Below are positions 35,586 through 36,825 of a stretch of 64,000 bases of DNA, one piece after another (the stretch's first letter is position 1; each line of letters begins with the position of its first letter). The stretch spans positions 2,356,001 to 2,420,000 of the forward strand of contig LT907983.1 of the NCBI GenBank assembly GCA_900230115.1. Reading direction: 5' to 3'. The notes below the pieces were generated by a model. That model was not told where the DNA came from. It did not search any database and was given only the letters and a program-made list of their open reading frames with translations. Position numbers and translations under genes: made by a program. This stretch comes from Spirosomataceae bacterium TFI 002 (GTDB taxonomy: Bacteria > Bacteroidota > Bacteroidia > Cytophagales > Spirosomataceae).

Positions 35586-35697
35586 AGTGAGTATCTGCCA
35601 AATGGTGCAACATTTTTCCAAAAAATCCGTATTCCTTATTGAGATTCTATATTTATTGGTAAATTTCCACCACGAGTTGTTTTCGATGATACAATAC

Positions 35698-35982
35698 ATG
35701 ATCACATTTAGTCTACCAGATACATTTCCTCAGGAGTTCATTGAACAAATTCCAGAGCAACGTTTTGTTATTGACAAGATGCTGAAAGAAGGAAAACTGT
35801 TTTCTTACACTTTAACTTTGGATAGGTCGAGGTTGTGGTGTATCGCCAATGCCGACTCAGAGATGGAAGTTGTTTCGCTCATTCATCAATTCCCCCTTAT
35901 AGACTACATGAACTACGAAATTGAAGAGCTTATGTTTCACAATCAAAGTGCCATTCAAGTACCTGCTTTTTCGTTGAACTAG
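35698..35982 (+). CDS. Small protein, muconolactone-isomerase-like fold
   Basis: The 94-residue product begins MITFSLPDTFPQEFIEQIPEQRF. It has the pattern of dimeric alpha-beta barrel proteins related to muconolactone isomerase and YciI: a strand, a helix, then TLTLDRSRLWCIANADS with strands, then VVSLIHQFPLIDY. No catalytic role is evident, and a ring-cleavage pathway is not nearby. The start may be the ATG at 35686, four codons earlier. The stop is one base before the barnase-like gene's ATG, so these genes form one operon. Confidence 0.65.
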   Translation: MITFSLPDTFPQEFIEQIPEQRFVIDKMLKEGKLFSYTLTLDRSRLWCIANADSEMEVVSLIHQFPLIDYMNYEIEELMFHNQSAIQVPAFSLN

Positions 35983-35983
35983 A

Positions 35984-36355
35984 ATGAAATACTTTTTAAA
36001 ACCCTTACTCTGGTCACTTGTTTTCTTGTTTTTAGGTGCTTCTTCATGCCGAATGGCGAACAACAAAGTTGAAGCCCCAATTGAAGCCTACGAAACATTA
36101 GATTACATCATAAAATACAATAAAGCACCTGATGGGTATGTGGGTGGTCGTAAGTTTGGCAACTTTGAGGAGCTTTTACCAAAAAAAACAGAGCAAGGAA
36201 AGAAAATATTCTACAAAGAGTGGGATATTTACCCCAAGAAAAAAGGAATAAATAGAGGCCCGCATAGATTAGTAACCGGAAACAACCGTACTGCTTTTTA
36301 TACACCAGATCACTATCAATCCTTCATCGAGATTTTCCCGAAAGAGAATAAATAA
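35984..36355 (+). CDS. Barnase-like ribonuclease, lipoprotein form
   Basis: The 123-residue product has a lipoprotein signal (LGASSC, Cys22) and a barnase / RNase N1-T1 fold domain. The catalytic set aligns with Bacillus barnase: Glu79 in YKEWDIY (E73), Arg91 and Arg95 (R83 and R87, the same four-residue spacing) and His110 in TPDHYQSF (H102, the same 15-residue spacing from the second Arg). The opening DYIIKYNKAPDGYV matches the barnase N-terminal helices. It should therefore be an active guanyl-type RNase tethered to the envelope. The barstar-like gene follows after 47 bases. Confidence 0.88.
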   Translation: MKYFLKPLLWSLVFLFLGASSCRMANNKVEAPIEAYETLDYIIKYNKAPDGYVGGRKFGNFEELLPKKTEQGKKIFYKEWDIYPKKKGINRGPHRLVTGNNRTAFYTPDHYQSFIEIFPKENK

Positions 36356-36402
36356 TTACATTGTTAAACATAAACAGCTAATAATTAAGCAAATACCCTG
36401 GA

Positions 36403-36825
36403 ATGAATAACCTTATCATTACAGACAGCCCTGAACTTTTAGAAGATCAGGCTCTCATCAAGATCGATAGTAAAAAATGCAAATCGCTTCGTGAGTTTTA
36501 TGAAACGCTAGCCCAAGAACTAAAATTTCCAGACTATTTTGGTTACAATTTAGATTCTTTCGACGAATTGATGAATGATTTATCTTGGATTGAGGATGAG
36601 CGAATCCTGCTTTACTTTTACAATTCGGAGCTTTTCTTAAGAAATGAAAGAAACGAAAAGAAGTTAACCACCTTGCTAGACCAGCTAGATGCTACTTGTG
36701 AGGACTGGAAATATTATCGTGAAGATGAGGTCGAAGTAGAAGAGGGCGAAGAGCCTATTCCCAAAAAAGAATTGATTGTTGCTTTCTCAACAAGTGAACG
36801 TATATCCGAAATTTTGGATATGTAA
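36403..36825 (+). CDS. Barstar-like ribonuclease inhibitor
   Basis: The 140-residue cytoplasmic protein has the barstar pattern: LREFYETLAQELKFPDYFGYNLDSFDELMNDL, in which Asp51 matches the inhibitory D35 and Glu55 replaces D39, the two acidic residues that plug the RNase active site. The C terminus has an added acidic stretch (REDEVEVEEGEEPIP). It is 50 residues longer than Bacillus barstar. It follows the barnase-like gene in the same orientation and should protect the cytoplasm before the RNase is exported. Confidence 0.87.
   Translation: MNNLIITDSPELLEDQALIKIDSKKCKSLREFYETLAQELKFPDYFGYNLDSFDELMNDLSWIEDERILLYFYNSELFLRNERNEKKLTTLLDQLDATCEDWKYYREDEVEVEEGEEPIPKKELIVAFSTSERISEILDM

What the first reader, a model, noticed from the sequence alone, without database searches (positions are those of the whole stretch)
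35984..36825. Envelope-tethered barnase with a long barstar
The RNase keeps the full barnase catalytic set (Glu79, Arg91, Arg95, His110, with barnase-like spacing) but carries a lipoprotein signal with Cys22 where Bacillus barnase is freely secreted. The inhibitor is 50 residues longer, with an acidic addition, and has Glu55 at the position of Asp39. A surface-bound RNase could serve nutrient scavenging, defence, or contact-dependent killing; the inhibitor may give self-protection.
Basis: partly seen in the sequence, partly recalled or inferred. Interest (0 to 1): 0.62.

Follow-up and report, generated by a model that had tools for sequence, protein, structure and literature searches.

The report
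Membrane-tethered RNase with its cytosolic inhibitor
This is a real enzyme-inhibitor pair of the barnase-barstar kind, with the enzyme probably anchored in the cell envelope; in many related bacteria only the inhibitor is kept, and there it often changes the two residues that enzyme-bearing relatives never change, which suggests the inhibitor also has a second job.

Summary
In detail: 35984-36355 encodes a guanyl-type RNase (Pfam 9e-12) and 36403-36825 a long barstar (5e-20); both are predicted to fold as such. Glu79/Arg91/Arg95/His110 are kept; barnase's Arg59 is not (Phe61). A lipid anchor is plausible: 61 of 79 relatives have a Cys ending the signal's hydrophobic stretch; nine others carry a membrane helix. 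'Surface-bound' is not supported: residues after Cys lack the acidic signal of this genome's SusD lipoproteins (acid at +3 in 20 of 25, against 1 of 61 RNases), so a periplasm-facing enzyme is likelier. Contact-dependent killing is not supported. The pair is a variant of a widespread kind. The unexpected part is evolutionary: in this family the barstar model finds 170 of 222 genomes, the RNase model 80. Asn49 and Asp51 (barstar Asn33/Asp35, direct barnase contacts) are invariant in all 76 RNase-bearing genomes examined; 27 of 80 RNase-less ones keep both, though their barstars are under equally strong purifying selection. So the RNase appears to hold this site, and the barstar probably has an RNase-independent role. 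No activity was tested.

The parts
35686..35982 (+). Muconolactone-isomerase-like small protein (98 aa), conserved gene upstream of the pair; its stop codon ends 1 bp before the RNase start
   Evidence: PF02426 1.4e-6; start chosen by alignment with relatives; directly upstream of the barstar in 29 of 66 RNase-less loci
35984..36355 (+). Guanyl-type RNase of the barnase/RNase Sa family, 123 aa, with N-terminal signal
   Evidence: PF00545 9.1e-12; model m8308e519eb43, blocks 31-120 at pLDDT 90-98, Foldseek best barnase 1.7e-6 and RNase Sa2 TM 0.72 of target
35984..36049 (+). Putative lipoprotein signal ending in Ala-Ser-Ser-Cys22
   Evidence: sequence; Cys at the end of the hydrophobic stretch in 61 of 79 family RNases
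36403..36825 (+). Long barstar, 140 aa, no export signal seen, computed pI 4.2
   Evidence: PF01337 5.2e-20; model pLDDT 90.2, Foldseek hits barstar 1.4e-4; pI
36547..36555 (+). Asn49-Leu50-Asp51, equivalent of barstar Asn33-Leu34-Asp35; Asn49 and Asp51 invariant when the RNase gene is present
   Evidence: both kept in 73 of 73 plus 3 of 3 later RNase-bearing genomes against 27 of 66 plus 0 of 14 RNase-less ones
36565..36567 (+). Glu55, at the position of barstar Asp39
   Evidence: alignment; Glu or Asp in 73 of 73 RNase-bearing and 63 of 66 RNase-less genomes
36718..36765 (+). Acidic, variable-length loop (residues 106-121) before the last strand
   Evidence: pLDDT blocks 70 and 77; length varies, absent in some relatives

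Best explanation
The two genes make a guanyl-type RNase and its inhibitor. The RNase is exported and stays tied to a membrane by a lipid on Cys22, most likely facing the periplasm, where it would cut incoming or released RNA (inferred). The cytosolic barstar blocks the active site of RNase that has not yet been exported, using the same face as Bacillus barstar (inferred from fold, gene order and covariation; not tested). In this bacterial family the RNase is dispensable and seems to have been lost repeatedly from a locus that keeps the barstar. The barstar is kept because it also does something that needs no RNase (inferred from purifying selection on RNase-less copies); its partner there is unknown.
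For: Families and folds. Barstar directly downstream, same strand, within 250 bp in 71 of 79 RNase loci; 2 lie 1.5-2.1 kb away; in 6 the held stretch shows none. Of the 80 relatives from named genomes of many phyla, 56 have a barstar-like frame on the same strand, most of them overlapping or abutting the RNase frame. Tether: Cys in 61 of 79, membrane helix without Cys in nine of the ten members of one genus. No surface signal: acid at +3 in 1 of 61 RNases against 20 of 25 SusD proteins (Fisher 6e-14). Partner dependence: a scan of the barstar columns on a tree built without residues 44-56 gives Asp51 16 changes on RNase-less branches and 0 on RNase-bearing ones (p 3e-7), Asn49 14 and 0 (p 2e-6), next best p 3e-3; later set 3 of 3 against 0 of 14. 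Barnase contacts of Asn33 and Asp35: PMC4207830, passages. RNase-less barstars: median dN/dS 0.041-0.067 by genus; RNase-bearing 0.043-0.075. Same flanks with and without the RNase gene.
Against: No activity, binding or localisation was measured. The window's lipobox is weak at -3 and lipid attachment is predicted only. 18 of 79 relatives lack the Cys, including cleavable-looking signals in one genus, so tethering is not universal. Barnase Arg59, which Asp35 touches, is not kept here, so the contact made by Asp51 must differ in part. Glu55 (Asp39 position) stays acidic in 63 of 66 RNase-less copies, so some nuclease binding may survive there. In RNase-less copies Asp51 changes only to Glu and Asn49 only to Thr, Ser, Asp or Gly, all mild. 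A distant RNase elsewhere in those genomes is not excluded: the genome search missed the window's own RNase with the Pfam model, though it found it with the family alignment. Only 3 independent pairs rest on strongly supported branches, so that test has no power. Rooting is by midpoint; gain and loss cannot be told apart with certainty.
Confidence: 0.6

Rival explanations
1. Lipid-anchored antibacterial toxin with immunity protein, handed to neighbours by membrane contact or vesicles, like the SitA lipoprotein toxins of myxobacteria; RNase-less relatives keep the barstar as orphan immunity.
For: Lipoprotein-like signal; toxin-then-immunity gene order; RNase-less barstars outnumber RNases in the family. 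SitA precedent: abstract of PMC8546572. Orphan immunity genes are described in T6SS work (search listing).
Against: No escort or delivery domain between anchor and RNase (about ten residues of linker here); the whole RNase domain is conserved in the family with no swapping of toxin modules; no surface signal; RNase-less barstars often change the very residues that bearers never change, the opposite of what immunity to the kin RNase needs; at most one match per genome in the family.
Confidence: 0.1
2. Surface-exposed scavenging enzyme: it digests external RNA at the outer face.
For: Bacteroidota use surface lipoproteins for nutrient capture (PMC5080379, abstract start and passages); long basic linkers in many relatives could reach outward.
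Against: The window protein has no acidic residue at +2 to +7, and 1 of 61 relatives is acidic at +3, against 20 of 25 SusD proteins. Nine of the ten members of one genus have an uncleaved helix of inner-membrane type, which would not put the enzyme on the surface.
Confidence: 0.15
3. RNase-less barstars have no unrelated second function but are re-targeted inhibitors of another nuclease, native or incoming; the Asn49/Asp51 changes are a specificity shift.
For: Acidity at the Asp39 position is kept in 63 of 66; changes at the site are few and mild; barstar otherwise conserved.
Against: None of 66 loci holds an RNase of this family beside the barstar (other nucleases were not sought there); dN/dS is low, without the fast change of an arms race; Asn49 goes only to residues that also cap a helix, as plain relaxation would give (the capping rule is recalled).
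Confidence: 0.25
4. The covariation is only shared ancestry: one or a few RNase-less clades happen to carry changed residues.
For: The presence of the RNase is clustered on the tree; only 3 pairs on starred branches.
Against: Departures occur in six genera; 16 changes at Asp51 and 14 at Asn49, none on RNase-bearing branches; these two columns stand out of all those scanned.
Confidence: 0.1

Closest known systems
Bacillus barnase-barstar
   Same: RNase fold and Glu/Arg/Arg/His set, inhibitor fold, inhibitor residues at Asn33, Asp35 and an acid at Asp39; RNase with export signal, inhibitor without
   Different: RNase tethered instead of freely secreted (predicted); Arg59 replaced by Phe; inhibitor 140 instead of about 90 residues; inhibitor often kept without the RNase
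Streptomyces RNase Sa2 (1py3/1pyl)
   Same: closest solved structure by sequence (4.7e-7), similar size of the domain
   Different: from a Gram-positive, freely secreted (recalled); no lipid anchor
Simple barnase-barstar pairs and Tox-Barnase/Imm-Barstar of the polymorphic toxin survey (PMC3482391, passages)
   Same: toxin-then-inhibitor gene pair; that paper already notes widely distributed simple pairs and lists Bacteroidetes
   Different: no polymorphic toxin architecture here; a lipid anchor and RNase-less inhibitors with a changed site are not in the passages seen
SitA lipoprotein toxins of Myxococcus (PMC8546572, abstract)
   Same: lipoprotein nuclease with a separate protective protein
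   Different: no escort domain and no polymorphism here; an outer-membrane-exchange system was not looked for

Membership tests
Barnase/RNase Sa-type guanyl RNase (PF00545) | profile match over the curated cut-off | tested here: met
   45.8 bits against a cut-off of 24
Barnase/RNase Sa-type guanyl RNase (PF00545) | microbial RNase fold | tested here: met
   model pLDDT 86, Foldseek barnase 1.7e-6, RNase Sa2 3.5e-5
Barnase/RNase Sa-type guanyl RNase (PF00545) | catalytic Glu, Arg, Arg, His | tested here: met
   Glu79, Arg91, Arg95, His110; 78 of 79 relatives, one cut short
Barnase proper | Arg59 of the guanine loop | tested here: not met
   Phe61 here; Tyr 43, Phe 29, Leu 7 of 79
Barnase/RNase Sa-type guanyl RNase (PF00545) | cuts RNA after G | not testable with these tools
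   needs purified enzyme
Barstar (PF01337) | profile match and fold | tested here: met
   71.7 bits against 23.4; Foldseek 1a19 1.4e-4
Barstar (PF01337) | Asn33, Asp35, Asp39 contact residues | tested here: met
   Asn49, Asp51, and Glu55 in place of Asp39
Barstar (PF01337) | binds and inhibits its RNase | not testable with these tools
   covariation only
Bacterial lipoprotein | signal peptide with lipobox Cys | tested here: inconclusive
   Ala-Ser-Ser-Cys22; Cys in 61 of 79 relatives; no predictor program was run
Surface lipoprotein of Bacteroidota | acidic export signal after Cys | tested here: not met
   none in the window protein; 1 of 61 relatives acidic at +3 against 20 of 25 SusD of the same genome. 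The rule was worked out in Capnocytophaga, Bacteroides and Flavobacterium
Polymorphic or SitA-type toxin | separate delivery/escort domain and exchanged toxin modules | tested here: not met
   RNase domain conserved end to end in 21 family members; only a variable linker precedes it

The most novel reading that the evidence does not exclude
In this family the barstar is a nearly universal protein with its own RNase-independent function, to which a dispensable membrane-tethered RNase is coupled; the RNase alone fixes Asn49 and Asp51, so its loss frees exactly that site.
Probability: 0.5. Interest if true: 0.62.

Novelty: new variant of a known kind. Interest (0 to 1): 0.46.

Why it matters
Barnase-barstar is a standard model of protein recognition. 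Here nature seems to have removed the partner about a dozen times: two contact residues relax when the enzyme is absent while the rest of the inhibitor stays under the same selection. That gives an in vivo reading of which contacts the enzyme enforces, and raises the question of what barstar-fold proteins without an RNase do, which annotation passes over by naming them inhibitors.

Tried and rejected
Orphan immunity against the kin RNase: I expected the contact residues to be kept in RNase-less genomes; most do not keep both.

Relics of the RNase in the empty site: best tblastn score 22.7 bits over 28 gaps (one of the 29 was too short to use), matched or beaten by several of 60 shuffled sets (up to 25.4), so no relic is claimed. 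An E of 0.008 for one genome did not survive that control.

Testing other families of the order: the 143-position barstar model finds strong matches only in the window's family; outside it 20 genomes match weakly, so there is no replicate there.

Independent-pairs sign test on the tree: 3 pairs on starred branches, no power. The per-column scan was used instead; it takes the best tree as given.

The Pfam model PF00545 in whole genomes missed the window's own gene, so that tally (20 of 59) is not used.

My first pattern for lipoboxes gave 44 of 79, too strict (ATG start and a narrow -1 residue required). One search gave 61 of 79; by eye one of these (G167) is an internal Cys and one missed row (G017) has the Cys, leaving 61. 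G013 was scored on the wrong stretch but has the Cys. The 80th RNase genome (G101) was not fetched.

Literature searches (open-access library only) for lipoprotein barnase in Bacteroidetes, Gram-negative barnase-barstar, barstar-like orphans, orphan immunity with barstar, and barnase with Spirosoma gave nothing on this pair beyond PMC3482391.

Full report
What is there. The window lies in a 5.46 Mb single-contig genome. Two genes on the + strand, 35984-36355 and 36403-36825, encode a 123-residue RNase and a 140-residue barstar. Pfam gives Ribonuclease 9.1e-12 and Barstar 5.2e-20. Upstream, ending 1 bp before the RNase, is a 98-residue muconolactone-isomerase-like protein. Among the best named matches of the RNase alignment are Jiulongibacter, Arcicella and Pseudarcicella; the first two are Cytophagales of the phylum Bacteroidota.

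The RNase. It keeps Glu79, Arg91, Arg95 and His110, found in 78 of 79 family members, the other being cut short. The model (mean pLDDT 86, domain mostly above 90) matches barnase (1.7e-6) and RNase Sa2; by sequence RNase Sa2 is closest. Barnase's Arg59 is replaced by Phe61 here and by Tyr, Phe or Leu in all 79, so it is not barnase in the narrow sense.

The tether. Of 79 family RNases, 61 have a Cys at the end of the signal's hydrophobic stretch; nine of the ten members of one genus have instead a membrane helix with no Cys; five of another genus and two more have other signals without the Cys; two (G220, G099) have no signal in the open frame because of an in-frame stop before the domain (two rows corrected by eye). 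After the Cys the family favours Arg or Gln; 1 of 61 has an acid at +3, against 20 of 25 parsed SusD lipoproteins of the window's genome (29 SusD matches, 4 not parsed). Export signals of surface lipoproteins in Bacteroidota are acidic (PMC5080379, passages). A periplasm-facing lipoprotein is therefore likelier than a surface one. This is inference; no prediction program for signal peptides was run, and part of the SusD motif may be structural.

Gene order elsewhere. Of 79 family RNase loci, 71 have the barstar directly downstream on the same strand; in two it is 1.5 and 2.1 kb off with other genes between; in six the held stretch shows none. Among 80 named relatives from many phyla, 56 have a recognisable barstar on the same strand, most next to the RNase. 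The passages seen in PMC3482391 already describe widely distributed simple barnase-barstar pairs. As a pair, this is a known kind.

Barstars without RNase. In 222 genomes of the family, the family barstar model finds 170 and the RNase model 80; 79 of those 80 also have the barstar, the last (G102) having its RNase near a contig end. So 91 genomes have the barstar and no RNase found. I looked at 66 of these loci: none holds the RNase. In 29 of 66 the isomerase-like gene lies directly before the barstar with 3-219 bp between, and gene order on both sides matches that of RNase-bearing relatives in several genera: an empty site. One RNase gene (genome G220) has an in-frame stop between signal and domain while its barstar is intact; a sequencing error is possible. 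The count on the barstar tree is 12 losses if only losses are allowed, or 7 losses and 4 gains otherwise.

What changes. In 139 aligned barstars, Asn49 and Asp51 are invariant in all 73 RNase-bearing genomes; 27 of 66 RNase-less ones keep both. These align with barstar Asn33 and Asp35, which touch His102 and Arg59 of barnase (PMC4207830, table seen as a passage). Scanning the columns on a tree built without residues 44-56, Asp51 has 16 changes on RNase-less and none on RNase-bearing branches (p 3e-7) and Asn49 14 and none (p 2e-6); the next column has p 3e-3, and RNase-less branches carry 39% of all changes. Of 18 columns conserved at 90% or more in bearers, only Phe42, Gly47, Asn49 and Asp51 fall below 90% in the others. 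Seventeen further genomes, fetched after the pattern was seen, fit it: 3 of 3 bearers keep both residues, 0 of 14 others do; the 14 come from genera seen before, and 14 more barstar genomes were not looked at. Median dN/dS by genus is 0.041-0.067 without and 0.043-0.075 with the RNase, from 2 to 82 usable pairs a group. The replacements (Asn to Thr, Ser, Asp, Gly; Asp to Glu) would still start the helix at residue 50 (helix; the capping rule is recalled). The reading is that the RNase demands the exact residues and the fold alone demands only a helix start.

Limits. Acidity at the Asp39 position is kept in 63 of 66 RNase-less copies, so these may still bind some nuclease. A distant RNase elsewhere in those genomes is not excluded. 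Branch support is thin: 33 of 136 inner branches are starred in the full tree, and only 3 independent pairs rest on starred branches. Relics of the RNase were not found beyond chance.

Verdict. As a gene pair it is a probably lipid-anchored variant of a known kind. The part worth following is the inhibitor that outlives its enzyme and changes just the enzyme's contact residues.

Noticed in passing
L120 (genome G220): The RNase gene has an in-frame stop between its lipoprotein signal and its RNase domain, while the barstar next to it is intact: a possible loss in progress.
   Followed up: partly
L160, L161 (genomes G097, G096); G098 and G028 by coordinates: In these genomes 1.5 to 5.2 kb separate RNase and barstar; in L160 and L161 the space holds unrelated frames.
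   Followed up: no
L034, L053, L070, L092: Barnase-type domains in frames of more than 1,000 residues, as in polymorphic toxins.
   Followed up: no
window 35686-35982: The muconolactone-isomerase-like gene is itself matched in 168 of 222 family genomes and stays beside the barstar in many that lack the RNase; in the RNase-less clade of one genus it lies about 30 kb away in several listed cases.
   Followed up: partly
genus g13 of the family (genomes of 2-3 Mb): None of the listed small genomes has the RNase or the barstar; a few have a weak isomerase match.
   Followed up: no
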